Source of the DNA: Porphyra umbilicalis
Lineage: Eukaryota > Rhodophyta > Bangiophyceae > Bangiales > Bangiaceae
Length of the DNA stretch: 64,000 nt
Direction: 5' to 3'
Assembly (NCBI GenBank): GCA_002049455.2
Contig: KV918963.1
Location: 78,985 to 142,984 of the forward strand
Shown here: in pieces, positions 20,260 to 44,073 of the stretch
Layout of the letters: each line of letters opens with the position of its first letter
Numbering within the stretch: the stretch's first letter is position 1
Program-made: the position numbers and the translations under genes
The notes under the pieces: generated by a model
Told to the model about the DNA's origin: nothing
Database searches by the model: none
The model's input: the letters and a program-made list of their open reading frames with translations, nothing else

Positions 20260-21199
20260 CCTCTGTCTCGCGCTTCGCAAGGGCACCCGGACCCACAGCA
20301 AGGGGTAACGTGCGGCTCATTCCAAATTAGGAGGGCACCCCGAAGCACCACAAGCCCTGGGGAGATCATATCCAGCCGTCGTCGTCCCGGCGACGACAGC
20401 GGGCCTGCGACGGGCCACAGAAGGCAGACGGTGCCAGGCCCTCGAACCACGATCACAATGCGCTGGATAGCTCGCAGTCACATCTCACTGCATCTTGCAT
20501 TGTCTGAACCAATCAAAAGTGCCGCAGAAGAGTACAAATGTGACCGTTAAAGCCAGAAGTGGGGGCAGCGGGCACCAGCCGCCCGGGTTATACCTTGAGG
20601 GACCGCTGCGTCAGCCGCCGCGCCCCCCCGGCCCCCAATTCCCCCCCCCCCACCCCCTCCCCTCGCCCACAACCCCCCGTCCCCCACTCCCCCCCCCTTC
20701 TTCCGTGCGCGCCGCCGCGGCCTTGCCACCGGAGCCGCGACCTGCGCCAGCACTGAGACGACTGCCTTCCACCGCTCACTTCCAATCTGCCGTTGGCTGG
20801 GTCCCCCCAAGGCGCCCGAGTGTCAGTTGCTCAGCCGTCGACGACAGTAATAAATTCGCGACGAGATCGCCGTGTTTACGGAGTTGTCAATGTGTGCACC
20901 ACATCCATTTATATTAGATAGTTGTGAGACACACATGTTTTAATCGCGATCAATTGTGACATCGGGAAACGTCTTCTACTTGACACTGTGGAGTCCACGC
21001 CATCATCCATTCATATGGCACGCACACGCATTGCTATTGCTATGAGCCCAATTTTGGCGGATGCCAAGCGCTACGCAAGCAACAGAGGGACTTTACATTT
21101 CAACAATAACTCTTCTGATTTTTGTGTAACTCCACTGAATGCGTTAAATGTTGAGTGTGGTCGACTTGCTGTCAAATTTGAGAGAAAGGGGTCGGATGG
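20260..21199. other. Intergenic, C-rich tract
   Basis: A strongly C-rich stretch at about 20615-20700 with several poly-C runs could form i-motif/G-quadruplex structures. AT-richer sequence follows at 20840-21130. No gene is recognised. Confidence 0.4.
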
Positions 21200-22340
21200 C
21201 CATGGCTGACGGCGTCGGCGCCGTCGTCAGCATCCACTCTGTCGGCAGCGTCGCGATCGCTGCCGCGCCGCCGCCGCCGCACACCAAGTCGGCTGCGCGG
21301 CGGCGGTGCGGCGGCGCGGCAGCGGCGGCAAAGAGGTCGCGGCCAGGCGCACGCGGCAAGGCGGCGACGCGGTGGCGCGGTGTGGCAGTTGGTGCGTGAG
21401 GGATGTTTGCGCGCTGGTAGGCGGAGAGAAACGGATTTCCGAGCGGCGGCGGCTGCAAGGCGAAAGCTGTAGAAGCCTGCCCTGCCGCCACATCCGACGT
21501 GCGGCGGCCGCCGCGGCGGTGGCGGCGGCATGATTGCTGCCGCGCCGCCGCCGCCCAACAACAGGTCGGCGGCGCGGCGGTGGTGCGACGACGCGGCGGT
21601 GGTGGCAGGGCAGAGGCGGCACGGCGGCTGCGCGGCCGCTCGGGGGCGCTGTTTGTGCGCGGGGGCTGCTGCTGCACTCGTAGGCGGGGAGGGGAGGGTT
21701 TTCGGGCGGCGGCGGCGGCTAGGCAGGTTCTGCTAAAGCCCGCCTCGCAGCCGTATTTGACATGCGGCGGCCTTTGCTGCCGCAGCGGCGGCGCGATTTT
21801 TGCCGCGCCGCTGCCACCGCTCACCAGGGCGGCGGCGCGGCGGCGCAGCGGCGGCGTGGCGGCGGCGGCGCGGCGGGGGCGGCAGTGTGGCGGCAACAAG
21901 AAGGCGGCGGCAAGTTGGCGGCGCGGCGGCGCTAAGGGGCCATTGGTGCGCAGGAGCTGTACCTGCGGTTTTCGGCGGGGGGGGGGGGGGGTTCAGGCGG
22001 CGGCGGCGGCGGGGTGCGCGCTAAAAAAGCCCGCCCCGTCGCCGTACCCTATATGCCGCGGCCGTCGCCGCGATGGCGGCGGCGAGATTGCTGCCGCGCC
22101 GCCGCCGCCACACACCAGGTCAGCGGCGCGGCGGCGGTGCGGCAGCACGGCCGTGGCGTAAAGCCGCCATCATCGGGGCGGCGGCGCGGCAGCGCGGGGG
22201 GCTTGTTTGTGCGCGTGGGGTGTTTGTCCGGTCGTCGGTCGCTGGATGGGGGCTTTCGGGTGGCGGCGGAGGCGGCGGCGCTGGTGTTGAAAAAGCCCGC
22301 CCCGCCGCCGCACCCGTCCAAGAAGCCTGCACATCTTACA
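21200..22340 (+). repeat. Tandem array, about 270 bp x 4, GC-rich
   Basis: The block GCTGCCGCGCCGCCGCCGC followed by a CAGGTCGGC-like segment recurs near 21259, 21535, 21798 and 22088 (spacing roughly 262-290 bp). Each unit ends in a less GC-rich segment with TTTGTGCGCG and AAGCCYGCC. Ala/Gly/Arg ORFs across it are products of the repeat. Confidence 0.75.
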
Positions 22341-22498
22341 GCTGAGCCCGTTCGTGACACCCTCACGGGGAATGACATGGACCACGCCAAGGATTGCATC
22401 TGAGCCAAGGATTGCATCTGAGCCAAATGCGCGCCAAGCAGGACAGCTGTGGTAATGACGCGCTAGCGGCCGGAGTGCTCATGAAAATATTCTGAATA

Positions 22499-23348
22499 TT
22501 GCTATCCCCCAAAACAGGGCGGTCGCAGAGAGAAGGGAGGCAGAGCCGACGACACAGCATAGAAATGCAGTTGCATTGGCTGTTCGACAAGCCACGATCG
22601 TACTATTGGCTGAGAGTTGCCGCCAGTATTGCTGATCCCCAAATTTTGTCCTGGGGGACAGAGACAGTGACTGACTGTGAATAACAGCATTCTATTGGTC
22701 GAAAACGACAGTAAAAAGGCATCAAAGCCAATAGAAAGCCCGCATTCGATACCAGGACCTTGCATCCAGCAGAACGCACTGTTTGTTGCCTCTTGATCCG
22801 ATTTTCTTGGCACGGAGCAAGCTGCCCATGCGAGATCTTGAGATTTTCTACTGTCTCCTTGCCAGAAGTGCAGAAAAAAAGAGGAGCTGATGTCAATTTC
22901 CAGACTGGATGGGCACATGTAAGCCATCAGGCGCACCAAGTCAGTCCCAGGGGCGTATCTGATTGGCGGAGAGAGTCGGTCCGCAAGTCAGTCTCTGTCC
23001 ACCAGGACAAAATTCGGGGATCAGCAATAATCTTGCAAGCCAATCAACGTGTCTTGCAGGGGTCACGCAGAGCCATTGCGACCGACTATGAGATTTCCTG
23101 AGATTTTTGGGCCGCTTGCTTGGGCCTGCTGAGGGCATGGAGAGGGTTCTGGGCCAGACCTGTGATTTGTCATGAGATCAACAATTTTCTTCAGATTTCT
23201 TGAGATCATGATGTGCGTTTCCAGCGCGCAGAGCTGCATGAGGACACTGGGTAAGGAACTCACATGATTCCTAGCCATTCCATTGGTGCACGTACGCTGT
23301 TGAATAATTGCAACCACTCTACAACCGCCATTTTTTCGAGGTCAGCAA
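22499..23348 (+). mobile_element. MITE-A copy 3, carrying a nested MITE-B
   Basis: Outer termini TTGCTATCCCCC and GAGGTCAGCAA, flanked by TA at 22497-22498 and 23349-23350. Without the nested element it is about 449 bp, close to copy 2 (462 bp), and the interior aligns with copy 2 (for example 'GATTGGCTGTTCGAC' versus 'CATTGGCTGTTCGAC'). Confidence 0.85.
22629..23027 (+). mobile_element. MITE-B copy 2 nested in MITE-A
   Basis: A 399-bp element with ~37-bp inverted ends starting TTGCTGATCCCC, two mismatches between ends. The host MITE-A reads GCCGCCAG-TA-ATCTTGCAAG uninterrupted at 7196-7215. Here the TA is duplicated either side of the insert (22627-22628, 23028-23029): a direct empty-site/filled-site proof of insertion with TA duplication. 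Confidence 0.9.
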
Positions 23349-23834
23349 TACTACGGCCGATCCTCACTTTGAACCAATCAGACGAGCCTGATACCGGCTT
23401 GTATGAGCATCTTGACCAGAAATGATCATGAAATCTCGAACCGTACAATTGGTCGACACGATGACGAAGCGCTTGGCATCGGCCAAAATCGAGCAAACAG
23501 CAATATAATCGTCCTGAGAAGTTGGACTTTGGGCTGAGGCAAATATTACGCGATAACTTCGATATCACAAAACAGTACCGTTGTGTGCATTTGCTATGAG
23601 GCCCTGCGTCAAAGTTACTTATTTAAGCAGTGACCGGTGGGGAGCAAGTGAAGCGCGTGTGCGTGTGTGGCAATCGTCGTGACCTGGCCGGCAGTCCCGA
23701 CCTCAGTCACCTCCATCGGCAACGCATTCGCGACCCCGTATCCGAGACGCGTCCTCGTCTCCACTGGCGCGTGCTGACGACAACTACCGCGAGGCTGATG
23801 TCGCGTTTACACTGCCAAGCTTCTTCCACACACT
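23349..23834. other. Flank of the Plavaka-like gene
   Basis: No ORF or motif of note. It may hold the promoter of the downstream gene, but I cannot identify a core element. Confidence 0.3.
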
Positions 23835-26800
23835 ATGAAGCGGAGGCGGTGCACTGTCGAGGGATGTGATGACCGACGTCTGTTCACTCCCATGCACTTT
23901 GGCCGTCACGTGCGCATTAGGCACCGGCTCGCAAATGCCGCGAATGGCGCGGACCATGCTGTCACACCATCACTGCGTGATGTGTTTTCCAACACCTGCA
24001 CAATGTCTGGAGCGCGCATTGCAGCTGCACATCAGATGTGCTTGTCGGTCGAGAGGGCGACCGACGCGACGACAACGCCGTGCAAGGACGCGCTCCCCAC
24101 GCCAGCATCGCTCAAGACCGCAGTGCGGAACGAAAAAAAAGCGCATGCTACGGAAGCTGGGATGGATGCAAGCCGTCGTCAAGACAAAGGTTGGTACTCA
24201 CCATATCCTCCTCCGCAAGGGTCTTCAAGCTGTGCAAGACTGTCTTTCGGGGGCCTCGACCGTCAGGTGCGAGCGGGGATCAGATGAGTGTACCTGTGCT
24301 GCGGGCGTGTGTTACACGCCAAATGCATCCCACGTTTGGTCAGATGCAGACTCCCAAAATGGGGCAGATGCAGCAACATCAAGATTGAAAGGCTCAGACG
24401 TCCATTCCCGGACCGCGACGCCAACAACCGCGTGCGCAATGTGCACGCCATCGGTCTCGGAAGGAGGCGACGTTCCAGACCCACCCGTTCTGCAAGACGC
24501 AGACGTACTGCGGGACATCTTTGATGGTCGTGCATATTGGGCCCAGCGCGTGGATGTCAACCACGTGTTTGGCTTGCGCGCACTGATGCTGGCAGTGGCA
24601 CTCTACTCAGATGGGACGGTGGTGACCTCCTCCGGTGGTACTTTCTCTCACATTCCCGCTTCTTTTCATTGCGCCTGCTAGTTGTGGCCAGTGGTAGCAT
24701 CATCATACCATCTTCGATTGATTTCGATACCATCTGTACCATGCATCTCGCTACATTCCAATAGCTAACGGGCCCGTGCCACTTATGTTTTGGCCTTTCT
24801 GTCTCTGCTCATTGTTTCCCTGGCAGTTGTTTCGGCGTACCCACTGCGAATGAGAGTGATGAACATCGTGTCAAAGGCGCCAGAATGGGTCGTCGTGGCA
24901 TACATGCCTCAGGTACGGTCTCGGTACGAGGCAATGTCTCAATCCAAGGCTGCAGAGGCTCGAGCAGAGATCCTCCAACGCACCACCGCGCTGGTCTTCC
25001 GAGATGTCATGCTTGCCAGTCACTTTGGCACGGAGATGATTTATGATCATCACCACCAGTCCGAGACTTATTCTGTACGTGTCGGACCAGCCCGAAGAGC
25101 GCGACATTGTGTGTCTCAAGCGGCATGGTAGCGCCTACGACTGCACGCCATGTATGGCACGCTCTACATCGTGTGGAGTTCGGCCTTCCAGAAGTAACTC
25201 TCCCAAGAAGCGGAACGTGCTCAAGACGGTCAAACTGCAGCTCAAGGTGGCGCGAATGCGGGGTATACGGGGTAACGGTGTCGTCATCAATGCCATTGAG
25301 ACCGCCAACAGCATCCACTGCGTTATGCCAGCACTCGCCGGCTGGGCAGGTCTGGGTTCCGGTCCGCTGCTGCTATACCAGATCTTTGGGTTTGACCGGC
25401 TGCATGTACGTTGCACGTTTGTTTCTTCTTTTGACTATTTTCTTCTACTTCTTGCATGCGATTGCGCAAGACGGCATCTTGACTGACAAGATATCCATGC
25501 CATGCACACTCCATGCAACTCACACCCTCGTGCTCCTTATTTTGCCGCCCACAGGTGTTGGACCTCGGCATCTGCAGGACGCTGACAACAGCTGTGCATG
25601 CCTTTGCTCATGAGCTCGCCGGAACAAAGAAGCTCGCGCACGGCACAGCGTGAGAGATGCTGCGGATCGCCAACAAGCGGTTTTTGTTCGCGTGCCGAAC
25701 GCATTGCGTCCCATCCATCTTTCCCGGGTATCTTTTTGCTCGTCTTGACAGATGCACTGTTTCAACGGTGAGCAATGTGGTCAAAATGACATCGCGATGC
25801 CGACAGATGGTGGTGCGCAATGTGATCATTTCTGACGTCGCTGGGCATAGCCCTCGCTGCTTCGTTTGCCTGACTCCATGCATGTTCCACAGGTACTTTA
25901 TCAAATATGGAGAGAAACAAGCTACCTTGAAAGACAAAAAGCACCGTGAGGCGGTGCACTTCTTGGCTTTCGCCGCGGCCGGCGTATTCGGGCGGACAGG
26001 CGCCGGAGGGCGGGATCACCGCGTCCTCACGTGGGTTCTCTGCGAGCTCGCCGCGATCTTGAAGAGCGCCTTCGACGTGCGTCCGAAGACTTGGGCGCAC
26101 GCCAAGTCGGTCTGCCGTCGGATGAGTCGCTGGAGTGAGAACGACTTTCAGACACTCTTTGGGCCCTCGCACACAACTAAGCTGCATCGCGCCGTGTCTC
26201 ATTTGTTGGATGAGTTCATCCTTCGAGGCAACCTTCAAGACGGCAACACAGGCGTCAACGAGGCGCTGCACAAGTTTGTCAAGCAGGCATTTGCTCTCAC
26301 GAACAAGAGTCGTGACAAGGCAGCACTGCAAATGGTGTTGACAGAGCAGATTGATAGCCTTGTACGTCGGTCGCGGTAGGTATCAAAAACACTTGCCAAA
26401 ACAGCTGAAACGGTGCGCCGCGTGCGTGCTCGTGAAGCGGTCAGCTCTGTCTCGGAATTGGCAGCCACGTCAGGCTTGGTCGCCTTGAACGAGGCCTTGC
26501 ATTGCTCTACATCTGACCACATCACGACTCAATCCGGGGCATTGCTTCCTGGTGCGGGAGACCATCGAGCGCGCGGCGAGCGCACTATGCTCTGGGCAAC
26601 AAGGGACCTGGGCGGACGCGCATGGTATGACTGGGTGCGCTACCATACGGACGACGGGACTGTTCGTGTCGGGCAGGCACGGGCAGTTGTTGCGGCGCAC
26701 AACGGCACCCTCATGCGCACTGTTGTTCTGCATCGTGCTGAGTACGCTAGCACCGTACTCGACTGTCACTTCACGCCGTATGGGTGCAAGATGCTGCAGT

Positions 26801-27000
26801 GGTGCAGTCAGATTGGCGAAGGAAAGGTACACCCCGACCTTCAGGCCATTGATTCGCACCAGGTCATCGAGGTACTGTGCGTAGAGCACGACTGAGAGGA
26901 GTGGGTGGATCGTGTCAGGGTGTGTCGACTCCCCCAGAGCTTTGCTTCTGATGCGAGCGACTGGCGCGACTATCGCTTCTTCATCAACAACTTCGTGTGA
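23835..27000 (+). pseudogene. Plavaka-like (CACTA-related) transposase gene with introns and nonsense codons
   Basis: A spliced, decayed transposase gene. The N-terminus has a C2H2 finger ('CTVEGCDDRR' then 'HFGRHVRIRH'). A later exon ends 'LMLAVALYSDGT'; a GT-AG intron (24635-24826) restores frame into 'YPLRMRVMNIVSKAPEWVV', a pattern typical of Plavaka-type transposases. After a frame change near 25050 comes 'YVSDQPEERD' with a CxxC. A second intron (25406-25554) joins 'GFDRLH' to 'VLDLGICRTL'. The frame then continues through in-frame TGA (25651), TAG (26377) and TGA (26893) to 'DWRDYRFFINNF' and a stop at 26998. The first exons (24190-24400) change frame and are unresolved. Three of the stops could be C-to-T changes. 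Family assignment is by motif memory; KDZ or another CACTA-like family is possible. Confidence 0.55.
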
Positions 27001-28429
27001 GGAGAGGGCGAGGGTCGAGAGTACGTGATGATGTGTGCATAAACCTCTTTGAGAATCTGGATGATTTTGCTGACAATCTGCTACATTTGCTGACATTGGA
27101 TGATATCTCATCCGTCACACCTCTTCCACGAGTGGAAACTCGTTGGGTCCTCGCCACCCCAAAGACCTGAATCACTGCCAAGCGTGTGATAGAGATGCTC
27201 TCAAACGGCCTCAAAGGCCCTTTTCCTGAGGCTAGCCCACAGGCTAAGTCATTCGGGAGTGTCTTGGCCGTGAGAGCTGTTCAACCCAGAATCGTGGTCG
27301 CATCAGAGACGCCCGTCCTCGCTGTGGGTCTCTCTGGTGGCGTCGAGGAGGCACACCTGCGCGATTGGCGATTGTGAGACCACAGGTCCAACGAATCATC
27401 TGCAATCAGTCCTGCACGGACTCGGTTTACTTCCTGTAGCCCCCCAGCACGTGGTCAAAAAACTTTCCTCGTGTTTGTTTACAGGCAAGGTGACGCTGAC
27501 TTGGGCCACTGGACGCACTGGGGTGGATTGAGGACCCACCTTAACGCTTGAGATGCATTTGAAATGATGTCCTAACCGGATCAGAGAACTCCAGCCGACA
27601 CAGTTGTTGCGGATGGCCGGATGGTTGCACGCATTTGCCTGCCTTTGGTATGATTATGAACTGCCCTAAGGTCAGGTTAGCGGTCAAGGCCTCACGGTCT
27701 GAGTCTTAGAATCGACCGGTCGCGGCCGAGGACATTGCAGCAGAGAAATGACATATATGGACTAGAAAATGACGACAAGATGCAAATAAGTATGTCTTTG
27801 AGCACGTCAAGAGCCATCCCGATGTCATGTACAGCGCTCGAGATGCGGTGCGATGCACAAAATGACATCCAGATGCAGGTGGGCACGGCTGCCGACGATG
27901 GGCGTGCGGACGGGGGCTCGGGAAGACGAGTGCGGGAAGCGATGGACTTGCGCACAAACAAACAAACAAAAAATAGGCGATCCATCCGAGGCGTCGCGGC
28001 CCCGGTGCCGCCGCTGCGGCCGTCGCAGTGGCCCGACGGGCCCGCCAAGGCGTCTTGCCCCGGGCGCGGTGGCAGCCGCTCCGCACCTGTCACCCACCGT
28101 GGACCCATCGTGCCCTTGGGGGCGGGCAGCGGCGACTGTTCAGCGGTGGGAAGCGCTCCCCACCGCCCCCCCCCCCGGCGCGCCCGCCGCCACGCCCGCC
28201 ACGAGCAGCTGGCGGTCCCTGCGGCGCGCCTACCCCCTTCCTTCCCCCCGCCATTTGGGGGCGACGACCTTGAAGCCGTCGGGGAGGTTCCCCAGCCCCC
28301 CTCCAGCGTTGGCCTCACTGGCGGAGAAGCCGACGCGGCCCTCTCCGCCGTCGTTGGGTTGCTCCTCGCAACCGTCGACCTCGTCGGCGCCCACACGCTG
28401 CTGCTCGCTCGCCCCGTTTTGGGGGAAGG
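27001..28429. other. Intergenic, no gene supported
   Basis: Mixed composition to 27700, then GC-rich with overlapping Arg/Pro-rich ORFs on both strands. Some of 28240-28430 may belong to the CAP-D2-like gene that follows, but I could not confirm it. Confidence 0.35.
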
Positions 28430-30117: not shown

Positions 30118-30246
30118 GTAGGGCGGCGGTTGGGTTGCCGGATGAGACGGGGGGGGGGGGGGGCGGGGCGGGGGGGGTCCGGCGTGACGGCCGACGAGGG
30201 GGGGGGGGGGGGGATACGGAGGGCGACCCGCCGTCGCTGCCCGTCG

Positions 30247-30312
30247 ATGAGGGCGACGGCAACGGCGACGGCGACGGTAACGGCGACGGCGGCTGTGACG
30301 GTGACGGTGTCG
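30247..30312. repeat. GACGGC/GACGGT short tandem repeat
   Basis: About ten hexamers of GACGGC, GACGGT or AACGGC, encoding Gly/Asp in one frame. Confidence 0.7.
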
Positions 30313-30490
30313 ACGCGCCGTCGCGGCCTCCCGCCGACGGCGACACGGACGAGGAGTCGCCCACATTCGACCCCCGCCGGGGCAGCCGCCACCCTCACCG
30401 CCCGCGATGTGGCCTTTTGCCTCGCGCAACAACCTTCCCCCGACCGCTCCGTTTGGCTGGCAGCTGGGTTGCCCGTCCTAGCCCACCACC

Positions 30491-31137
30491 TTGGCGCCGA
30501 AGACGTTTTGAGATAAAACGCTATACTTTGACACCCACGTCGTCGTCCCGAAACGACTGTCCCGCCTCTTATCCAACGTCGAGGGTCACTCCATCCTCGA
30601 CCACCGCACGCCCAGCCTCACGCAGACCCGTGCCGCCCGCACGCCCTGGCCCGCCCAGCCCTGCCCTCACTGGCCCGCCCGCCCCGCGGGCCTCTCCCGT
30701 CTCTCCGCCGGCCCTATTATGGCCGTCTCCCGGCCCTTGATGGAGCGCGCTGCGCCACGAACGCCAGCCCCGCGTCCGACCTGCTCTTGGTCGCGGACTG
30801 ACGATTGGCCCGCACCGGCCGGATCCAGTCCGGATCACGTGCTGGATCAAGCCGCGGCTTACAAACGCCATCTCACAGATGTGGCGCCGCGAGGCAGTCG
30901 ACAGCCTGGTGCGGCGGCTAGCCGTCGGGCTGGTGGCGACGCGGGGACAGGCGCCCCCCCGACCCTCGTGCTGGCCAAAACGCCCAGTCTCTGCCGACGC
31001 GCGCGCGTCTACGCCGCCCGCCATGCGGCCTGCGGCGGCGCCGCGCCCGCGGCGCACCCACGACAGAAAACATGCACGGCCGCCGCCGACGCAGGGGAGG
31101 AGTGACCGATGCGGCAGACCGCTGAGTCGTGCTTCTA
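30491..31137. other. Intergenic, no gene supported
   Basis: GC-rich. ORFs here are Pro/Arg/Ala-rich without motifs. It could contain the extreme 3' end of the CAP-D2-like gene. Confidence 0.35.
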
Positions 31138-31765
31138 TGGTGCGTGTCCCAAAAATGGGACATCGCAGTTTTTTCTGTTTTTCTCGGCCCACTGGCCTTC
31201 TGCAACGGTCCGGTAATGTAATGCGACCCACTCGGTCCCACTGTGATTTCAGAAAAGCCCCTGACAGTGTTAGCAGAGGTGGCACATCCTGACGTGTCAT
31301 GGGGGAAAGTGTCATTCATTGCAACTTCGACAGGTGACGATCACGCGGGCCAATCAATTGCACACATGCTAGAGCAGGCATGTGCTGACAATTTGTGCAC
31401 GAAGAAAAGGGCACCACCTTACCAATTAAAACGTGAAAAAGACCCCCATGTAGCCCCCTGTGAGGAAAGCACGATTTGGGACACCCCTGATCGAAGCTCC
31501 AGTTAGCACATGAGCTTTGGCGTTGCAAACCTTTCACCCCAAGAACCTGAAAAAGACTGGCTCTAAGATCGGGGCTATCTGAGAGGTCCACAGAACAGGG
31601 CCCACAGGCGGGTATTAAGGAGTTGTCAGCCAAGCACGCGTCGGGAGAGGCTCTTTCCATGAATGCCAGTCGAGAATTTTATCGTACCCGACGCCGCCTG
31701 CCCCCGTGCAGAGATGTGTCAGTCCTTCAGAAAACGCGCATGTCTCATTTTTGGGACACGCACCA
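31138..31765 (+). mobile_element. MITE-D copy 1 (628 bp, TA duplication)
   Basis: Termini TGGTGCGTGTCCCAAAAAT and its inverted copy ending GGGACACGCACCA, flanked by TA at 31136-31137 and 31766-31767. No transposase ORF. A second copy of identical length is at 57207-57834, in the same orientation. Confidence 0.85.
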
Positions 31766-33648
31766 TACAACCACCGTCGCCCCGCCCCTCACTAGCGCCG
31801 AGGCAGCTCGAGTGCGGTTTCACCGATCAACGGCACGCCCGCGTCGCCGTGCCTGGTGGTCTTGGTGTCGCCACGGATGACAGGTTCCACGCGAGACCAC
31901 GCCGCATGGCGCGCGCGCCCTGCGGCGTGAGCCAAACTCGGCGTCGCGTTTTCTATCAAACGCCCATCCCATGCATTCCCCCACCCCCCCCAGAAGCTAG
32001 GGGGGAGGGTGGGTACTCTACCTCTTCATTCTAGCGGCTGCCACGGCCACGTCTGCGGCGGCAGCCGCCTCCGCGCTACGGCGCCTAATATTTCCAGGCA
32101 CCCCCCATTTCCCCACCAGACAAGACCGTGTCTTGGGAGCAGTCAATATCATATTTGTATGAAATTGAGACGCTCCTCAGACACGGTCAAGCCCTGACAC
32201 TTTTATCAGAGCGTGTACGGAGCAGCACCAAGAATGATATGTATACAAATCGGACGCGGAGCACCACACCATGAGGCAAGCGAGAAAGCTCGCAAAAGTA
32301 CAGCGTGCCAGCCCGTGGCTGTTCAAAGCAAGAACCTACTGTGCACGTGTGCACGCTGGCGCTCGTCCAAACTCCTCGCGCGCCACAAGCGCACTTCTCA
32401 TCAAGACAAACCTGTACACGAGGCAAACAACAGGACCCCAAGAGCGCACGACGCTTGCCGCCCGCCTCACATGCCGCGACCGTCATTCGGCGAGCTTAGA
32501 GCGCCACCCACCGACACGTCAGCTCCCCAGCCTCACATCATGCCCTTGGCGTCGGGCACGTGGCAGCGCCCGCATCGGCCGCCGCTCGGCGACGCAGCAC
32601 CGCGCGGCAGCGGTGGCGGCGGGCGGCACACGCCTTCCCCACGACTGAGATCTTGCGCTTGTTGATGAGACTCACCTGCGCGGCGGCGGCGGTGGGGGGC
32701 GGCGTGGCTGACGCCGGCTTGGCGAGCACGACCATGTCGGCAGCGGGCGTTGACATCGGGGACGGGGTGGGGGTGGCCGTCATCTTGATGGCAACCAGGG
32801 CCTGAGGGGGATAAAGAAGAGCCAGACATATCCGCACATTATACTCGTAATAATCCATAATCCATGCCGCAGCCGCGTATCCATATCGTACTCTGTTCAT
32901 TTACCGCCGGATATCCTGAGCCTGAATGACTCTGCAAAGGCCGGATATGATATAATCTGAATCGAATTTCCACCTTGCCTGATCCGGCTCACATATTCTG
33001 CGCCGCAGTGCCGGCGCGTGCCCAGCGGGGGGGTCCCCACCCTGTTCAACCGCCATCATCTGGCAGTGCCAAGCGGCGATCTTGCCGGAAAATTCCCGAA
33101 CGGTTCTGTCCCGTGTCTGAAACCGCTTTCCTTGCTGTCAACGGCCCGCGCAAGATTCCGAACGGGCACCCCTGGGTGAGCACACGAGAGTTCCAACGAT
33201 CACTACCGACGAGGACCGCTGCACCATCGAAATCAGTCCCAACAACCAATTGGTACTTGACGGCGGTTCATCGCGACTAACGCTTGGGAAGAGACACGCG
33301 TATTTAAATCACATGTAAGACTGTAACTGGAGAGATGTATCCTTTCATTTCATTTCGTTTCAATTTTAGACTTCTTCCAGATCCATCATTCAAGAGAATA
33401 TATTCAATCTGTCTATCCCAACCATGTTCAAAATCCTACTAATTGAATATCCGACTATAATATTGATCCTGACTCTGTCCGTCCCAGCAAGATCTGATTT
33501 TGGATAAATGACATCGCCAAATACTCAATCCAGAGTGCATGTGACGGGATGTGGATTATATTCTAATGCAACCAAAAGTGCCTGATTCCAAAGCCCCTGA
33601 TGGCAACCTGCGAGACGGGGAGGCACAGGCGCCGGCGTCCTTGGGCGG
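31766..33648. other. Intergenic; AT-rich island with GGATAT motifs
   Basis: Apart from a possible minus-strand exon (32676-32801) I see no gene. 32820-32990 is AT-rich with repeated ATCC/GGATAT motifs, as also at 56590-57960. 33300-33560 is another AT-rich stretch without features. Confidence 0.35.
32676..32801 (-). CDS. Possible internal exon of an unknown gene
   Basis: 126 bp bounded on the minus strand by a strong acceptor (TTTATCCCCCTCAG, exon from 32801) and a consensus donor (GCGCAG then GTGAGTCTC, at 32675). It encodes 42 Thr/Pro/Ala-rich residues beginning 'ALVAIKMTAT'. A further acceptor near 32420 (TTGCCTCGTGTACAG) leads to a Cys-rich frame 'VCLDEKCACG'. No family is recognised. 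Confidence 0.3.
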
Positions 33649-34110
33649 TGTTGGCGAAACCGTCCCGTAGGCCACGCGTGCAGTTTGCCCCGCGTGGCAC
33701 CATCCTGGGTGTCGAGTAGGGTTGGGTCGTCGGTCAACTTTCTCTTCGCCCCCGGGGCCAGTCCCCTGGCGTGACCCTATAAATACTCTCCCAGGCGTTT
33801 CCCATCTCATGAGCAGCTGTATGCCGGCACCCCGCACCGCACTGCACCGCACCGCGCAGTCCCTCCCTCGCCTGGTCGTGTCGAGCACCGCCCCGTACGC
33901 TGGCGGCACCCGACACTCTCGGTCGTCACACCGCTTGTCCGACACGAGTGCATCTCCTCGGGGGGGAGACCGCCATCCCGGTTGTGCTTCCGCGGTGCTG
34001 CTGGTTGTCAGTTGGCGTGGCACCTGCAGGGACACCCGTCCCTGTGGGCGCCGCCCCCGGGGGGGGGGGCGTAATAATCAGGCCACCCACCCCCGGCTCA
34101 CTCGGCTCCA
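33649..34110 (-). repeat. copia-2 3' LTR
   Basis: On the plus strand it runs TGTTGGCGAAAC to GGCTCCA. Read on the plus strand, that is antisense to the element, it holds a consensus TATA box (CTATAAATA near 33778). The RT/RNase H frame continues ~185 bp into it before stopping. Confidence 0.85.
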
Positions 34111-37100
34111 TTACTCCCCCACGTGGGACGTCTTGGGGTGGGCCGCGCATCCCGAGGCCCCGAACCCTTCGAGCGAACGCAATTGTCCCCAGGGGCTTGG
34201 TCAAGATGTCGGCCGTCTGCTCCGCCGTCCTGACGTACTGCACCACGAGCGTCCCGTCAGCGACGCGCTCCCACACGAGATGGTGGCACACGTCAATGTG
34301 CTTCGTCTGTGCACTTATCACGGGGTTGTGCATAATCGCCAGGGCGCTCTGGCTGTCGCACCAAAGCGCTACGCTGCCAGCCTCCTCCGTCACAAAAGCC
34401 CGGAGCCGGCGGAGCCACACGCTCTCCTTGGCCGCTCCCGCCGCCGCGATGTGTTCTGCTTCCGTAGTGGACGCCGCCACCGAGGGCTGCAAATTGCTGC
34501 CCCAGGTCACCGCTGCCCCACCGTAGAGGAAGATTATGGCGGACGTCGACCGTCGGTTGTCGCGGTCCGCCGCAAAGTCGGCATCGCAGAACCCGGTGAG
34601 CTCGCCCGCACCGGAGAACCAAAGCCCCAGCTCAGCGCTCCCTTTCAGGTGGCGGAGGACCACCTTTCCGGCGGTCAGGTGCTCCTCCGTCGGGGCGGCC
34701 ACAAACTGTGTGAGCCGCCCCACAGCAAAGGCGATATCCGGCCGGGTGCTTGTGCTCTGGTACAACAGGGACCCGACCAGCTCTTGGTACCTTCTGGTCA
34801 GGTCCGCATTCAAGTACCGCCCAACCTTGCTGAGGTGGGCGCCTGCCCTCATGAGCAGTTGCACCGGGTTGGCCTCCTCGAGTCCAAAGCGCGTCAAGAG
34901 CGAGGAGCTGTACTGGCGCTGATGCACCCGCGTCGTCCGCGCCCCAGCATCGCGCTCGATATGTAGCCCGAGGAAGTAGGCCGGCTCCCCCATCTTCTTC
35001 CTCTTGAATGCGGTGGTATCCGCCGCCTGTCCCGCCTGCGCCGCGGCCACCGTGGGCGCCGCTACGAGGAGGTCATCCACATACACCAGAATGAAGCACA
35101 CATCCCCCCCTGGCCCAACGCGATTGAAGAGGCATTCTTCGGCCTCACACGCCTCGAAGCCGGCGCGCTCCAAGGTCTCGCGCAACTTCCGGTACCACGC
35201 CCGTGCCGCCTGCTTGAGCCCGTAGAGGGCCTTGCGCGAGCGGCACACCATTCCGGGTGCCCCGGGTTCGTAGCCGCGCGGCTCCCGAATGTAGAGCTCC
35301 TACTCAACCTCACCGTTTAGGAAAGCTGTTGCCACGTCAAGCTGCAGCAGCGCCAGGGAATGAATGCTGCAGTGTGCCAGGAGCATACGGAGGGTGGTTT
35401 AGCGGGCCACAGGCGCCCAGGTCGGCGTGTAGTCAATCAGCGGGATCTGAGTGACCCCGCGCACGACGAGCCGACCCTTGCTCTTCACGATCTCCCCGTT
35501 GGCGCCACGCTTCCGCTCACAGAGCAGCTTCGTCTGCGTCACCTTCTTTCCGGATGGGAGCGGCATCATCTTCCACGTCCCATTGTCCCACAAGGCCTGC
35601 ACCTCGACGCAGTTGGCCGCATCCAAGGCGAGCCAGTCCGCCTCCTTGCGCGCCTCGTATATGCACATGTTGTCAGGCCCGCCACGGCCGCCGGCGGTGA
35701 GCGCCCAGGCGCGCAGACCCTTGCCCCCGTTCTCGGCCCCCTGCGTACATTTCGGCCGATTGTGCAGGCGGAGCGAGCGGCGGGAAGCTCCGGTCCCATC
35801 ACCGTCGTGGGTGCATGCATCCGTTGTGCAAGCATGTGCTCCTGGACTGTTTGATTGAAGCGATCGGCCACTCCGGTGTGCTGGTGTGCGTAGGGGGCGG
35901 ACGTCTCGTGCCGGATACCCTTGTCACTCATCCACTTGTCGAATGTCGGGCCGCAATACTCCATGCCGTCATCGTTCCGGATGGTCAGGACGCGTTCCCC
36001 CGTCACATTCTCCCAGAGGTTGAGCACCCGCATAAGAGCGTTCGTGGCTTGCCCATTCTCGGCGATGGGCGTGATGACCTTGTACCTGCTGTAGTCGTCA
36101 ACCGCCATCATCATGTACCGCCGCCTCTTTGGGGTGGGGACAGACCTGGGACCGATCACGTCAGAGTGCACGAGCACTAGAACACTCTCAGGCTCCCGGT
36201 CGGATGCCATGTATGGCGCGCGCACCAACTTCCCCATGATGCAGGGTTCTCAGGGAGCCCCCTTCAGGGTCGCCAGAGCCGAGCGCGTCAGGTCCATCCC
36301 GTTGACCGCCTCCCACGTCCGCATCAGCCCGTCTACGGACAGATGCGCGTACCGCCGGTGCCAGAGCGCGGCCTTCGGGTCTGAACCGCCCGTGCGCACC
36401 TCCGTAGCAGGCCCACTCGTCCCAGCGACCTGGTCAGGCAGCACAGAGGGGGCGCCCCCCGCCTCAAGCACACGTGGCGTAGCCTCCTCCACAGAACGCG
36501 ACGAAGAGGCCTCCTCCGCACCCATGGGCGGGGCGACCGGGTCGGGCGGGGCGGCCGATGCCGCCAGTGCCTTGTCGCCATCGCCAACGGGCCCCTGCGT
36601 GTGGAGGACATGGATGCCGCCGGCTGTCGTGCCGCGCAAGATGGTGGAACCCGCGTGAAGAATGCGCAACCCAGCATCGGTGAACTCTGTCGTGTAGCCC
36701 GCACGCCAGGTGGTGCGGACAGAGAACAGGAACATGATCATTTCTGGAACGAGGAGCACGTCCCGCAGGATTATCTTTGTTCCGTCCACGCGGAGCACCG
36801 CTGTCCCGCGGGTTGTTGCACGCGTGGTAGTGCCGTCAGCGAGGGTGATGGTCACGGGACGCCCTAGATGCACGTCGCGCAGGCGGGCGGCCGTACCACA
36901 CATGTGGTGGGAAGCCCCGCTATCCACAGCCCACCCGTCGCCGGCCCCCCATGCACCTGCATCGTTTCACACCCTGTGGGCCAGTAGCGCACCGCCACGG
37001 CGGATGTTCATGTCGGCCACCTGGTAGGCCAACATGGCGTACCCGGCCTCCTCCTCGTCCTCGCCCACGTCTGCCTCGAGGGCAAGTCGGGCCAGACCGG

Positions 37101-37965
37101 CCGTACCCGCGTCGTCGTCCTCCGCAGGGGGCACCACGGCATTCTGCTTGGGTGCGCCAGACCGCGCACGGCAGTAACGCTGGATGTGACCGAGCTGGTC
37201 ACACTTGTGGCGGCGGTGGTTTCGGTAACGATCCCGGAGAGGGCGCCGGTCTTCGTCTGCCGCGGCTGCCAGGGCCGTGGCCGCTTCCTTCTCCGCCTTG
37301 TCCTGCTCCTGGATACGCTTGGCGCGCACGTCCGCGGCGCGCAACATAGCGAGCGCCTTGCGCACGGTAATGTCGTCGCGCTCCTCCATGGACGAGAGCG
37401 TGTGCTCGTACTTGGAGGGGATCCCCCCAAGGAGAGCACCTAGCAGCCAATTTTCGTCGACTGTGATGTCGAGCTCTTGCAGCAGCGCAACAAGTTCCCA
37501 GGCCCGGTTGAAATTGCGAACGAGCGTCTCGTTGGGTCTCATTTTCAGCATGTTCAGCTGCCGTCGGAGGGCATTGGCACGGAAGGTCCGCTTGGGATGA
37601 AACTCCTCCCGGAGCGCCGCCCATAGACCACGCCCCGTCCGGTGCCGCCGTAGTTTGGCGCTGTGGTGCGCCCGCACGTTCAGCATAATTATGACCCGCG
37701 CGCGCTCGCCACGCTGCCGCTGCTCGTTCACCGTCTCATCCCAGGAAAGCGCCGCTGTTGCGGGGTCTGCAGGGACCGTTCGCATCTTGTCCGCCGCCAA
37801 GCCGCTGCCACTGCCGGCCGCAGCACTGCCGTCGGTGTCGTCGTGCAGCGGCTCCGTCTTGGAGGCCCCGAGGGTCGCCCCCGATCGAAGCTGCATCCCC
37901 ATCGCCGGATGTCCAGCCGACGACGTGATTTGTGGCTCCGCTTCTGGGTGATTTGTGGGGACCAC
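33926..37965 (-). pseudogene. copia-2 gag-pol, several stops and one frameshift
   Basis: Ty1/copia polyprotein in order. Gag runs from 37965 and has a knuckle lacking its first Cys ('RHKCDQLGHIQRYC'). The protease 'MDSGASHHMCG' keeps the canonical DSG. The HHCC region follows ('LWHRRYAHLS', 'EPCIMGK'), then the integrase ('HSDVIGP', 'IRNDDGMEY', 'GVADRFNQTV': the usual Glu is Asp), RT ('LDVATAFLNG', 'KALYGLKQAARAWY', 'LVYVDDLL') and RNase H ('GFCDADFAAD'). The frame is kept through stops at about 36967 (TGA), 36250 (TGA), 35399 (TAA) and 35300 (TAG), with one frameshift between integrase and RT (35570-35700). It is inactive, but decay is mostly by point mutation. Confidence 0.85.
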
Positions 37966-38428
37966 GAGGCCTCACAAGTCGTGAAACCGGAGAAGGTACT
38001 CAATCTCGTGGCTCCAGGCCATGTAGTTGTCATTGTCCAACTTCGATGTGACCCGAGGTAATTACTGCCCGCCCGACGCCATGATGTCGGTTGGCAGAGT
38101 CAGCTCCGCTGCAGCGCGGCGGAGCCCTTGCACGTCTGACGCACCGCGTACCTTGGCCCCACCCCCGCGCCTCGTGAGTCGCGTCAGTGGCGTGCCGGCA
38201 CCGTGTTGCCGGGGTCGCCCGCCTTCGCGGTCGGCCCGTCTGCCCACACCGGTGCCTCCACCAGTGCTGTCGGCGCAGCTGGTAGCTCCTCTACCAGGGC
38301 CGGGATGTCATCACACGGCGCCTCTGCGCCGATGGTTGTACAGCCGGGATCCCCGGACTCAGCTAGCCGCGCCGCCAGCCACTCCTACGAACTCAGCAAC
38401 AGTCCGTACGGTGTGCGTAATGGGTCGC

Positions 38429-38442
38429 CTGGGCACATAACC
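38429..38442 (-). promoter_or_regulatory. copia-2 primer binding site (half tRNA-iMet)
   Basis: On the minus strand GGTTATGTGCCCAG directly follows the 5' LTR. It differs by one base from the copia-1 site and from the complement of the initiator tRNA-Met anticodon arm. Confidence 0.75.
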
Positions 38443-38906
38443 TGTCGGCGAAGCCAATCCGTAGACCACGCGTGCAGTTTGCCCCGCGTGGCGCCCTCCT
38501 GGGTGTCGAGTAGGGTTGGGTCGTTGTTCAACTTTCTCTTCGCCCCCGGCGCCAGTCCCCTGGTGTGACCCTATAAATACTCTCCCAGGCGTTCCCCATC
38601 TCATGAGCAGCTGCATGCCGGCACCCCGCACCGCACTGCACCGCACCGCGCAGTCCCTCCCTCGCCTGGTCGTGTCGAGCACCGCCCCGTACGCTGGCGG
38701 CACCCGACACTCTCGGTCGTCACACCGCTTGTCCGACACGAGTGCATCTCCTCGGGGGGGAGACCGCCATCCCGGTTGTGCTTCCGCGGTGCTGCTGGTT
38801 GTCAGTTGGCGTGGCACCTGCAGGGACACCCGTCCCTGTGGGCGCCGCCCCCGGGGGGGGGGCGTAATAATCAGGCCCCCCACCCCCGGCTCACTCAGCT
38901 TTAACA
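38443..38906 (-). repeat. copia-2 5' LTR
   Basis: Plus-strand termini TGTCGGCG and TTTAACA. As in the 3' copy, a CTATAAATA box lies on the strand opposite to the element's genes (near 38571), so it could drive outward plus-strand transcription. Confidence 0.85.
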
Positions 38907-40128
38907 GGCGGCCGCCCTGCGGGGCGCGCCGCCTCGCGCTGGGGTGGGGGGGGGCGCACCGGCGGTCGCCTGGGCGGCGGCCCGCCGCACCGCCGCCCGC
39001 CGCCGCCGGCGCGTCTGTCTGCCACTGGCGGCACGCGGCGGGCCGCCCGCGGCGAAGCCGGGGTGGGGTGAAGGCGGCGGCGGCGGCCTCCCGGGGCCCC
39101 CCCACCCGGGCGCCTCCGCTGCCGCCGGCCGCCGCGCGGCGGCGGCGGAGGCGCCGACGGCGCCGCCACGGCACGCGTTCGGGGGCCACCGCGGGCGCAC
39201 TGGCCCGCTTCGGTGGCGGTCGCGGCCGACCGTCGAGGGGCCGGCGGGTGCGGGCGGGCGGGCGGGCAAGAGCGACGCCGCGGCACGGGGCGAACGGCGC
39301 GCAGCGGGCACGGTGTTCAGAGTGTGGTGTTGTGGTAGCGGTGTGTATCTTTTTTTTCTGTCTCTCTCCTCCGTTGCCTCACCGCCCACTGCTTATGTAC
39401 CTACCGGCAGTGTCGTGGTCGTCCATCTGGCCCTCGCCCGCGCGTGTGCCCGCCTGTTGCCCACGCTGGCCCCAAACGCCCACACCCGACGGCACGCTCC
39501 GCGCGCCCCGGCTTGCACGCGGTTCCGCCACGTGCCCCTCAGCGCCCGTTGCGCTGGCGCCCCCTCGTGCGCTCGTGCTCCCACGCAGCGCCACAGTGGC
39601 GGCAGCCGCCACGCGGCTCCGCCCCCACGACCCCCGGTGTTGCGGCTCCCACGCAATCCACCGCTAACGGTCGTGTCGGCCGGTCCAATCTGGACCCGGC
39701 CACAGGCAATTTCCAAACCGTGGGGAAATTGCTCCGCCCGGTTGAGCTACCGTAATCTCACTGCCAAAACCCGGTCCGGGCGGGGCCGGGGGGTGTCGGG
39801 CGGGCGGCGAACCGCCGGCGGCCGAGCGCCAAGACAAGAAAAATAAATTCACAAGCACCAAAAAAAAAAGCAAACATACCCGCACCCCCTCGGCACGCGG
39901 CGCGTGCGCCGAGCGCAAAAAGGCTGCGCAGGGGCCCGCCTCCACAGCGGCCAAGCCGCGCCAGCACATCGCGGTCGTGCCCGCCCCCGCCCCACCGGGT
40001 CGCAGATCAGGGTCTGGGCCAGGGGCCTCCCCGCCCGACCGCACGCGTCGACGTCAAAACGCACCAGCACCTCGCTGCGGCCGTGCAGGGCGAGCACGAG
40101 GGTGACCATGCACACTTCCTTGTGGCAG
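38907..40128. other. GC-rich intergenic block
   Basis: Several frames are open on both strands between 38900 and 39850 but encode only Arg/Pro/Ala/Gly-rich sequence without motifs. I do not call a gene. Confidence 0.4.
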
Positions 40129-40879
40129 TATCGTCGGCCCGGCAGGAAATCACATCGAGCATGCATCGGGCTGCATCGACCATCGAAACCGGCTTTCGAT
40201 AGGCGTTTTTGGGCCCATCCGAGTCTTCATCGAAGTGCATCGCCCGATGGACACACAGCCGTTGACAGGAACCCAACAACACGTCCGTTACTGCCTCACG
40301 GTCTGCGCCGAGAGTCTTGACCGCCGTTACAGCTAGCATTAAGCACGGGCACTCTCGCGAATGATTGGTCCAGCTGCTATCCCCGTTGGATAAGGGACAG
40401 ATCTTGCTCCGACAGGTATGCTGCTTACTGTGGAGGGGCACTGTAAATGTAATGCAACGGGAATGTGAGCAGCAGGGTGCGGCATCCACGACGTGCTTAT
40501 CTGCTCAAGCACCGAGCGAGGCCGCAAGAGCGAACGGGCCTGACTTATGTGTCTGAGAATCCCGCGCGAGGAGATGGCCGCCAGCAAGGCGCGGTCTTAT
40601 ACTGTAGCGGGCTGTCCCTCCTCTGCTTGCGCGTCTTTGGCCATGCCGGGCGGGCATGCTAGGGGGGGGCCCCACCCCTGCGGCGCCGTGTCCCACACCA
40701 CCCAGACCGTCGTCACCCGAGCGGCCACCGCCGCCCCCGTCGGTGGCGGTGGCGGTCGCGGGCGGGAGAAGCATCCCCATCCCCCCCGGGCGGATGCGGC
40801 GGCGAGGTGCCTCGCCCCCCCCACCCCGTTACACGCGGTCGCCGACCGCCTCGTCGTTGGCGTTAACGCGCGCCCTCAG
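40129..40879 (+). mobile_element. TIR element copy B, distal half
   Basis: Matches 10668-11417 in the same orientation, starting at the terminal ATCGTCGGCCCGGCAGG. It ends at CTCAG (40875-40879), where the truncated LTR of element G begins. Reversed as part of segment 20260-44073, it continues 12888-13748 exactly where copy A continues. Confidence 0.85.
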
Positions 40880-41263
40880 TGAAAGAAATGCGTTTTCTTG
40901 ATGCCCCACTCGGCGGGGCTAGTCCCCAGCCGAGTGGCATCCTCATACAGGGGGCGAGGGCGAGCCGCGGCTTTGGCGTGCGCCCTGCGGCGCACCCCCG
41001 GGTCGGCGCCCACCCCGCGCGTCCGCGCGCACCCGTCGCGCCCCTCCTCTCCAAAGCAGGCATAGCCCCAAAGCAGACACATTGCATGCAGCCCCAGTAT
41101 GCGTCCGCGCGCTGGCACCCTCACGTGGCGTGGCGCTGCTGGTGTTGCGTGGCAGGTCCAGCCTGCCACCGGCAGCGTACCGCATGCGGCGCGGGTCGCC
41201 CCGCCCCGAGCGGTCGCGCATCCGCGGGGATGACGGGTGGTTTGGCGCCACCCGTCAGTCGGT
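40880..41263 (-). repeat. Element G 3' LTR, truncated at its start
   Basis: 384 bp matching 13782-14165. The first 33 bp of the LTR, any RNase H and the purine tract are gone. The RT frame joins the LTR at ACCGAC (41263-41258), a hexamer that also stands at the same place in the 5' LTR (13782-13787). Confidence 0.8.
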
Positions 41264-44073
41264 GAATCGCCGCGCGAGCATCGATGCCTCGCACTCGAGA
41301 AAAGGATAGGTCTGCCCGGTGGCCCACAGCAGGGCTCCGGTGGCGCGGCGGTAGAGCGTGAGCTCAGCCGCGGTCAGGGGCGACGAGACCTCCGCGCGGC
41401 GCGCTGCCGAGACGGAAAAGGCGACGATGGACTCGACGTATTCGTCCAGGTTGACGCGGAGGGAGAGCGCGCCTGATGACATGTCCACGACCGCGGCGAC
41501 CGCCAGTCCGGTGAACGTGAAGGCGCCGACCTTAATGGAGCCCGCCGCAAACCGCTCCCGCAGGGTCGCCTCGAAGCGACGCACCTCCGAGGCCGTCCCA
41601 CCGAAGAGGAAGTCATCGACGTGGACCGCCACCGCCAACACCAGCACCCCGTCCGCGTGCCGGGTGTAGAGGCCGTGGTCAACTGTCCAGCGGACCAGCC
41701 CTGACGCTCGCATGAGGACGAGCACCCTCTCGTACCAGCGGCCGGGGGCGTCGGTCAGGCCGTAGGCGCATTTGCACAGGCGCCAAACGACCCCCGCCGG
41801 CGCGCCAGACTGCGGCGGCGGCTGCACGTACACGGCCGCCGGTCGGTCCAGGGGCATGCCCTGTAAGAACGCAGTGCGCACATCGATTGTCCGCAGCAGG
41901 AACCTCCGCGACGCCAGCGCCGAGAAGAGCACTCGCAGGGTGGCGCGCGCCGCCGTCGGGGAGGTGCTGTCGACCGTGTCCTGAACACGGTCAACAAGGC
42001 GTGGCGGATGCCTTTGTGCCGGCCTGGCGAGACCCAGCGGCACCCGGCCCGGGCGCCAGGTCACTGTCCAACATCGCCAGCCCGACCGCGTATTCCGCCA
42101 GCCCGCCCTGCTCAGCGAGGGGCCGGTTGAGCAAGGCCGCCTCGGCGGACCCGTTGGCATTGGCCGGGAGCGCCAAGAAGCGGCGGGCGCCGCCCTGCCT
42201 GGTGCGCCCCGCCCAAGCCGACGGCACGGGGGGAGCGGCCGGCGGGGGCGACCCCACACGCCGTTGCGTAGCGTGGGCACCCGCCAACATGGTCGCCGTG
42301 GCATCGGAAAAGGGCGAGGGGGCGTCCGACTCCGAGTCATACGACAACCCTGACGACGAGGCCGACTCCGAGGACGAGGCTGAGGCCCCCTCGGCGGGCG
42401 CCGGGGCAGCCGCCGGCTCTTTGAAAGCCATGGCCGCCAAGACCACCGGCCGCACCTGGCTGCCGTGCCGGGTCACCCAGCGGTTGCCGTGCTGGAGCCG
42501 GACGGCGTCCTTGGCGACCGCCACGTCCGCGACGTGGGCGAGCCCTTCCCAGGCACCCGGCGATGAGTGGACCCCCTCGGTCCAGTAATATACCACGTCG
42601 CCCACCGCCCACAGCCTCGGGGGGACATTAGTGGCGTTCCGCGCGAGAGCCATTTGCATCGACACATCTGCTTCCGATTGGGTGTGCGCCGCCCGAGCGG
42701 CATGTAGCAGGGAGAGGTGCGTGCGCAGAGCATTGTCTCCACGCACACGCCGGTCCCCGAGGGCCGGCAGCGATTCCGTCAGGGCAGCAGGCAGCCGAGG
42801 CGCCGAACCGCACATGCGCTGGAACGGCGACACGCCGTTGTGGATGCTCATGCTGTTCTTAGCCAGGCAGGCCAGGTCCAGCAGCTCCTGCAGGGGTGCC
42901 GCCGGGTGGTGTTGCCGCAGCCGGCGCACCATTCCTTTGAGCGTCTGGATGTGCCGCTCGACAATGCCGTTGGAGTCGTGCGCCTTGCCCGCCGTGGACA
43001 GCGCCACGACGTTGAACCGCTCTGTCATGGAGCGGAACAGAGCGCTGTCAAACTCCGCGCCCGAGTCCGCCAGGATCGTGCGCGGGGCGCCGTGGTGCAC
43101 CAGCCACCCGGCCAGCATGGCCCGGGTCACCGTGGCCGTCTCCTTGTTGGGGATGGCCACGGCCTTGCTGAACCGCGAGCCCACGTCGACCATGTGCAGG
43201 AATGTCGCGTGCGGGGGAATGTACGCCAGATCGACCGCCACCGTGTCATTGAAAGGCATCGACCGCGGGATGGAGACGAGCGGGCGGGGCGGCCGCGGAG
43301 CGTCGCGGCGGCAGGCATCACACGAGACCACTGCCGTGACGACGGCGCGGAACACTTCCGGGTCCGAGACACCCTGGTCCTCCAGCAGGCCGATGAGCCG
43401 GGCAGCAGCACAGTGCCCGTACTGGGTGTGGAGCTTGCGCACCGCCCGGTCCAGGCCGGTCGAGTCCTTCGTCAGGATAGCCACCAACACGAGGTGCACG
43501 TCCGCCGACACGGCAAGGCGGACCTCCTCCGTGTCCACTCTGGTCAGCGCATTCAAGGTCAGGTGCCCCGCGCCGGACAGGGCCAGGGACACCGCCGCGG
43601 TGGGCGAGGCGATCAGCATGCGCCGAGCGTGGACGTCGAGGACGGCCCCCATCGACGCCAGCGAGGCGCTGCTAAGGAGAAGGGGCAGGGAGCCCGCCAC
43701 TACCCAGGTCGTGACGTGGCACCGTCGGTCGCCGACGCGGATGGGCAGGGTGAACTGCTCCACGGTGCGCTGCGACGCTCCGCCGCCGAAGGTAAAGACG
43801 GCCGACGCATCCACAGACCGGATCTCCGCCCGAGATGCAGAGTCCAGGCGTGCCACGTAGGCGGCCACTCAGGCCACGCCCGCAATGGTCGCCGTGGCGC
43901 CGATGTCAAAGATGACAAGGCCCACCGGGTCCTCCGAAAACGCGTTGACCCCGCCCGCCGTCGCCAGCACCAGGTGGCACTTGTGCTGGTTGGCGTACGT
44001 CGCCACGCCCCCGCCCCCATCAGCGCGGTCAGCAGCGGCAGGCGGCCCCGCAGGGCCACCCCCACCACCCACG
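41258..44073 (-). pseudogene. Element G protease-integrase-RT, decayed
   Basis: Continuation of the gag at 14490-15300. The protease active site reads 'VIFDIGATATIAG' at 43912-43874, followed by an in-frame TGA at 43871-43869 and the rest of the protease ('SLPLLLSSASLASMGAVLDV'). The integrase has an H-C-C region ('HTQYGHCAAARLIG', 'CDACRR') and core motifs 'VDLAYIPP', 'LADSGAEFDS' and 'NGIVERHIQTLKG'. The frame shifts near 42040, and the N-terminal RT segment appears deleted. RT resumes with 'RTIDVRTAFLQG', 'LCKCAYGLTDAPGRWY' and 'VHVDDFLFGG', stopping as 'RRFTD' at the LTR junction with no RNase H. Integrase before RT marks copia order. This lineage differs clearly from copia-1 and copia-2. 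Confidence 0.8.

What the first reader, a model, noticed from the sequence alone, without database searches (positions are those of the whole stretch)
20260..44073. A 23.8-kb inversion with breakpoints in copia LTRs, supported by several independent restorations
Flipping this segment turns several unmatched features into matches at once: solo LTR flanks become AGAGG/AGAGG; copia-1 flanks become CGAGG/CGTGG; element G gag rejoins its protease in frame; element G gains CTGAG on both sides and its two LTRs become direct repeats; TIR copy B becomes contiguous. Chance agreement is very unlikely. It is an example of inversion by recombination between inverted LTRs.
Basis: partly seen in the sequence, partly recalled or inferred. 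Interest (0 to 1): 0.92.

Follow-up and report, generated by a model that had tools for sequence, protein, structure and literature searches.

The report
Small inversion between two retrotransposon LTRs
A 23.8-kb piece of this genome is turned around relative to its original order, most likely by recombination between two oppositely facing copies of a retrotransposon end; sister copies elsewhere in the genome document the case unusually well, but the mechanism is textbook.

Summary
Of 28 other family members, 27 have flanks matching at 4/5 or 5/5. A second copy of element G (C37) reads straight from window 15300 to 44073(-), and four copies of the repeat carrying the solo LTR read straight from 20260(-) to 44490, each with one copy of the 5-bp target. 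G's CTGAG duplication and a 1606-bp inverted arm also re-form exactly. Three LTR sites fit a reciprocal crossover. So the present order is derived, and LTR-LTR ectopic recombination is the best mechanism. An assembly misjoin cannot be excluded without reads, though 23 of 24 other full-length copies have matched flanks in this assembly. A well-documented case of a known kind; interest moderate, not 0.92.

The parts
20260..44073 (.). inverted segment (23,814 bp)
   Evidence: exchanged 5-bp flanks; both host repeats unbroken in paralogues
15301..20259 (+). copia-1, Ty1/copia element with two 418-bp LTRs; open frame interrupted within RT
   Evidence: Pfam gag_2, integrase, RVT_2 split over two frames; LTR pair
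15301..15718 (+). copia-1 5' LTR (TG..CA), not involved in the exchange
19842..20259 (+). copia-1 3' LTR; left breakpoint inferred in its last third
   Evidence: like the 5' LTR at sites 182 and 294, unlike it at 395
44074..44489 (-). solo LTR of the copia-1 family; right breakpoint
   Evidence: shares the 5' LTR's T at site 395, common bases at 182 and 294
15296..15300 (+). CGAGG, left target-site copy of copia-1
44069..44073 (-). CGTGG, the other target-site copy of copia-1, now beside the solo LTR
   Evidence: C37 reads CGTGG once
20260..20264 (-). AGAGG, target-site copy of the solo LTR, now beside copia-1
44490..44494 (+). AGAGG, other target-site copy of the solo LTR
   Evidence: single AGAGG in C292, C410, C463, C33
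13749..15300 (+). element G, left part: LTR 13749-14165 and gag from 14490 with a CCHC knuckle
   Evidence: knuckle E 0.0015, just under Pfam's cut-off
40880..44073 (-). element G, right part: protease-like motif, integrase, RT and second LTR (41263-40880)
   Evidence: integrase E 9.9e-5, under Pfam's cut-off
13744..13748 (+). CTGAG, left target-site copy of element G
40875..40879 (-). CTGAG, right target-site copy of element G
10668..12273 (+). 1606-bp repeat unit, arm A
12888..13748 (-). arm B, inner 861 bp (3 mismatches to arm A)
40130..40879 (+). arm B, outer 750 bp (33 mismatches to arm A), carried away by the inversion
20260..27901 (-). repeat X, first part (reads rc from 27901 to 20260)
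   Evidence: collinear, with some insertions and deletions, with C292 and C410 to 27900/27901; C463 and C33 followed for a shorter way
44490..48014 (+). repeat X, second part
   Evidence: collinear with C292, C410, C463, C33 apart from about 1.15 kb missing here at 44780

Best explanation
An older retrotransposon (G, copia type) inserted into one arm of an inverted pair of 1606-bp repeats. A younger copia element (copia-1) then inserted into the gag region of G. About 24 kb away a solo LTR of the same copia family lay in a repeat (X, about 11 kb of it here) in the opposite orientation. A crossover between the 3' LTR of copia-1 and that solo LTR turned the 23,814 bp between them around. Shown: the nesting of the insertions, that the present order is not the one in which G and X exist elsewhere, and that both breakpoints lie at LTRs. 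Inferred: that the exchange was homologous (non-allelic) recombination in the organism, within about LTR positions 294-395.
For: Exchanged TSDs: 1/5 and 2/5 now, 4/5 and 5/5 after the flip, against 27 of 28 other family members at 4/5 or better as they stand. G unbroken in C37: the gag match ends at 311514 and the pol match begins at 311510, a 5-bp overlap equal to the TSD; in 6 of 6 other loci where both G pieces match (C37, C67, C79, C535, C23, C206) gag precedes pol on the same strand. X unbroken across the solo-LTR site in 4 of 4 paralogues with long matches, again with a 5-bp overlap. G's CTGAG pair and the 1606-bp arm re-form exactly. LTR sites: at 182 and 294 both copia-1 LTRs carry a base found in 0 of 38 other LTRs, the solo does not; at 395 the 5' LTR and the solo carry T, the 3' LTR and 38 of 38 others C.
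Against: No reads and no second isolate. Only one site (395) supports the exchange on the 3' side; sites 82 and 379 (3' LTR and solo agree against the 5' LTR) need private changes in the 5' LTR, and site 141 one in the 3' LTR. copia-1's restored TSD is 4/5, not 5/5. The chimeric LTR pattern would also arise from a misjoin. One of 28 other family members (C15) also has unmatched flanks, for an unknown reason. Two of the four X paralogues, and perhaps C535 and C23 among the G loci, may be copies of one another.
Confidence: 0.87

Rival explanations
1. Assembly misjoin: the true chromosome has the un-inverted order, and the assembler walked the 23.8-kb segment the wrong way between two inverted LTRs.
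For: Inverted repeats are a classic place for this (general knowledge); the family has at least 40 LTRs at 98% or more to the 3' LTR, copia-1's own two included; a misjoin would give the same exchanged flanks and chimeric LTRs; one other copy, C15, has unmatched flanks.
Against: The repeat to be bridged at the solo LTR is only 416 bp, at 96% identity. In the same assembly 23 of 24 other full-length copies and 4 of 4 solo LTRs have flanks matched at 4/5 or better, so bridging reads of about 5 kb probably existed (inference). No N in the window, and no second version of the locus seen: each of the four junction flanks has one 100% match, the window's own (in one search 40 of 44 candidates were scored).
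Confidence: 0.1
2. A different cut-and-rejoin process (integration-coupled rearrangement, or two successive exchanges through another chromosome) made the inversion rather than one LTR-LTR crossover.
For: The LTR sequence alone cannot date or order strand exchanges.
Against: Nothing is gained or lost at either breakpoint beyond the exchanged flanks; each re-paired element has one 5-bp TSD; one reciprocal crossover explains all in one step.
Confidence: 0.03

Closest known systems
[quoted passage not shown]
   Same: Two copies in opposite orientation at the breakpoints, exchanged target-site duplications, chimeric copies, single target sequence in the un-inverted arrangement (abstract excerpt and passages seen).
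   Different: Galileo is a P-superfamily transposon with 7-bp duplications, and un-inverted lines were sequenced; here the copies are LTRs of a Ty1/copia element with 5-bp duplications, and the un-inverted state is read from paralogues, not from other individuals.
Human-chimpanzee inversions caused by L1 and Alu elements (PMC2603318)
   Same: Inversions ascribed to retrotransposons (listing and start of abstract only).
   Different: Non-LTR elements, found by comparing two species.

Membership tests
Inversion by ectopic recombination between transposable-element copies (criteria as in PMC2775673) | homologous copies in opposite orientation at the two breakpoints | tested here: met
   3' LTR of copia-1 (+) and solo LTR (-), 96% identical
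Inversion by ectopic recombination between transposable-element copies (criteria as in PMC2775673) | exchanged target-site duplications | tested here: met
   4/5 and 5/5 when re-paired; 27 of 28 controls match as they stand
Inversion by ectopic recombination between transposable-element copies (criteria as in PMC2775673) | both copies chimeric | tested here: inconclusive
   the pattern at sites 182, 294, 395 fits, but only one such site lies 3' of the inferred crossover
Inversion by ectopic recombination between transposable-element copies (criteria as in PMC2775673) | un-inverted chromosome at the same locus with one target copy at each site | not testable with these tools
   paralogues show it, but no relative of this genome is held
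Ty1/copia LTR retrotransposon (copia-1) | TG..CA LTRs, 5-bp TSD, copia gag, integrase before RT | tested here: met
Ty1/copia LTR retrotransposon (element G) | integrase before RT, TG..CA LTR, 5-bp TSD | tested here: met
   integrase (weak, E 9.9e-5) in ORF 43868-41994(-), RVT_2 in ORF 42340-41258(-); CTGAG/CTGAG

The most novel reading that the evidence does not exclude
The segment is a live switch: with inverted LTRs still 23.8 kb apart it flips back and forth, so that both orders coexist in the population, and the LTRs keep being reshuffled by exchange.
Probability: 0.08. Interest if true: 0.45.

Novelty: new member of a known kind. Interest (0 to 1): 0.32.

Why it matters
Small inversions inside repeat-rich DNA are hard to prove. 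Here three insertions (G in the arm, copia-1 in G, the solo LTR in X) and unbroken paralogues fix the order of events to the base from a single assembly. The method could be applied genome-wide: compare the two flanks of each family member with each other and with empty sites in paralogues.

Tried and rejected
The 632-bp direct repeat 31136-31767 / 57205-57836, one copy inside and one outside the segment, was considered as counter-evidence (flipping would make it inverted). It is a dispersed element with short inverted ends and more than 40 matches over nearly its full length in the genome, so I take the two copies as independent insertions that say nothing about order.

One other family member (C15) has unmatched flanks (GCAAC / GGAGG). 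A search for a reciprocal partner with two exact patterns found none; with zero mismatches this is a weak test. Rfam found nothing at the gathering cut-offs. The organism was not identified: most of the best-scoring protein relatives of copia-1 are unnamed proteins from metagenome sources; the first named one is from the red alga Chondrus crispus. Literature searches list general precedents; only PMC2775673 was opened.

Weak points of counts. One search scored 40 of 724 candidates, so the control set is the 40 best matches to the 3' LTR; two of them are copia-1's own LTRs and were left out, the other 38 were used and came to 24 full-length copies and 4 solo LTRs. The window's own solo LTR was not among the 40. 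The mate of C205 matched over 377 of 418 bases. The full-length copies C76 and C63 are longer and shorter than the rest. The 20 LTRs fetched were fetched again with flanks and not counted separately. The G copy in C37 has no match to the last part of the window's G in the 8 kb fetched.

Full report
Setting. The window is G000:C203:78985-142984, the last 64 kb of a 142,984-base contig in an 83.8-Mb, 665-contig assembly. It is GC-rich and dense in mobile elements: at least three copia-type elements, a Plant_tran/DDE_Tnp_4 transposase frame, and a dispersed short repeat.

The breakpoints. copia-1 has LTRs at 15301-15718 and 19842-20259, and a family member without internal part lies at 44074-44489 on the minus strand. 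As the sequence stands copia-1 is flanked by CGAGG and CCTCT, and the solo LTR by CCACG and AGAGG, i.e. 1/5 and 2/5 identical. Re-pairing by flipping 20260-44073 gives CGAGG/CGTGG and AGAGG/AGAGG.

Control for the flanks. I examined the flanks of the other family members among the 40 best genome matches to the 3' LTR (40 of 724 candidates scored): 38 LTRs, which came to 24 full-length copies and 4 solo LTRs once mates were fetched. 25 of 28 match at 5/5, 2 of 28 at 4/5 (C17, C9), and 1 of 28 (C15) at 2/5. Among 378 pairings of these 28 elements, 1 gives swapped flanks as good as the window's.

Unbroken copies of both hosts. This is the strongest evidence and is new. The stretch left of copia-1 (gag of element G) and the stretch left of the solo LTR, read on the minus strand (pol of G), match C37:310774-311514 and C37:311510-312378 (92% and 89%): contiguous, same strand, overlapping by exactly the 5-bp target, which reads CGTGG there. 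In 6 of 6 other loci where both pieces match, gag precedes pol on the same strand; two of the six (C535, C23) may be duplicates of each other. On the other side, window 21200-20260 (minus) and 44490 onward match C292, C410, C463 and C33 without interruption at the site, again overlapping by 5 bp, AGAGG, in 4 of 4. This repeat, X, is collinear from window 27901 down to 20260 and then from 44490 to 48014, with some insertions and deletions; C463 and C33 were followed over a shorter stretch on the first side. Its true ends were not established: beyond 48014 the paralogues go on alike while the window differs. C463 and C33 share another copia insertion in X and may not be independent. None of these copies looks like an allele of this locus; over the junction flanks searched the C37 and X copies are 89-95% identical to the window.

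The nest. Element G sits between two copies of CTGAG, one at 13744-13748 and one at 40875-40879 (minus). The lengths agree without any further assumption: the 1606-bp repeat unit 10668-12273 equals 861 bp (12888-13748, inverted) plus 750 bp (40130-40879) minus the 5-bp duplication. The integrase-before-RT order makes G a copia-type element (the integrase match is weak). Its gag frame and the frame of the protease-like stretch beyond the junction agree, though a TGA at 43871 follows. Its second LTR does not match about the first 34 bp of the first.

Where the crossover fell. At LTR positions 182 and 294 both copia-1 LTRs carry a base seen in 0 of 38 other LTRs, and the solo LTR carries the common base. 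At 395 the 5' LTR and the solo LTR carry T while the 3' LTR and 38 of 38 others carry C. That is what a reciprocal crossover between 294 and 395 predicts: the end of the old 3' LTR moved to the solo LTR and vice versa. It rests on one site on the 3' side; sites 82 and 379 need private changes in the 5' LTR, site 141 one in the 3' LTR, and the other differences (among them 350 and 399) are private to the solo LTR.

Order of events. The two LTRs of G differ at 14 of 384 aligned bases (96.4%), the LTRs of copia-1 at 4 of 418, one of which the exchange would explain. With copia-1 lying inside G, G is the older insertion, and the inversion is younger than copia-1 because it splits copia-1's duplication.

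Organism or assembly? The inverted-repeat geometry would also permit a misjoin, and the chimeric LTRs do not decide. Against a misjoin: 23 of 24 other full-length copies, mostly about 5 kb long, have flanks matched at 4/5 or better in this same assembly, so it bridged this repeat correctly elsewhere, and the solo LTR needs only 416 bp to be bridged. The exception, C15, could itself be a misjoin or a second rearrangement. I put a misjoin at about one in ten.

Comparison with what is known. The three marks used for the Galileo-made inversion 2z3 in Drosophila (opposite orientation, exchanged duplications, chimeric copies; PMC2775673, abstract excerpt and passages seen) are met, met, and suggested. 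Ectopic recombination between LTRs is general knowledge (recalled).

Verdict. Observation confirmed, interpretation supported, mechanism known. The value lies in how completely the history can be read from one assembly.

Noticed in passing
10668-12273, 12888-13748, 40130-40879: The inner 861 bp of the inverted repeat arms differ at 3 sites, the outer 750 bp at 33 (Fisher p = 1.3e-8), and the change falls at the insertion point of element G (nearest mismatches 2 and 3 bases outside the CTGAG). This looks like arm-to-arm gene conversion that stopped where G inserted; the outer divergence (4.4%) is near the LTR divergence of G (3.6%). Collapse of the hairpin in assembly is the rival.
   Followed up: partly
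43871 (minus strand); L049:3213: An in-frame TGA follows the protease-like stretch of element G in the window, and the C37 copy, about 89% identical, also has an in-frame stop at what I calculate to be the same place (position match by arithmetic, not by alignment). It may be a shared defect or a regulated stop.
   Followed up: partly
C15:160737-165695 of G000 (L105, L121): Another full-length family member has unmatched flanks (GCAAC / GGAGG), the only such case among 28; possibly a second rearrangement. No partner found with two exact patterns.
   Followed up: partly
44780-44782: The window copy of repeat X lacks about 1.15 kb that the four paralogues have at this point.
   Followed up: no
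57205-57836; L049:7799-7800: A dispersed 632-bp element with short inverted ends; C37 shows what looks like its empty site, with window 57206 and 57835 adjacent.
   Followed up: no
33649-38900: Another copia-type element with 96%-identical LTRs lies wholly inside the inverted segment, on the minus strand.
   Followed up: no
C463 and C33 of G000 (L045, L047): Both X paralogues carry a copia-1-family element at the same position (window equivalent about 21519), so they probably descend from one copy.
   Followed up: no
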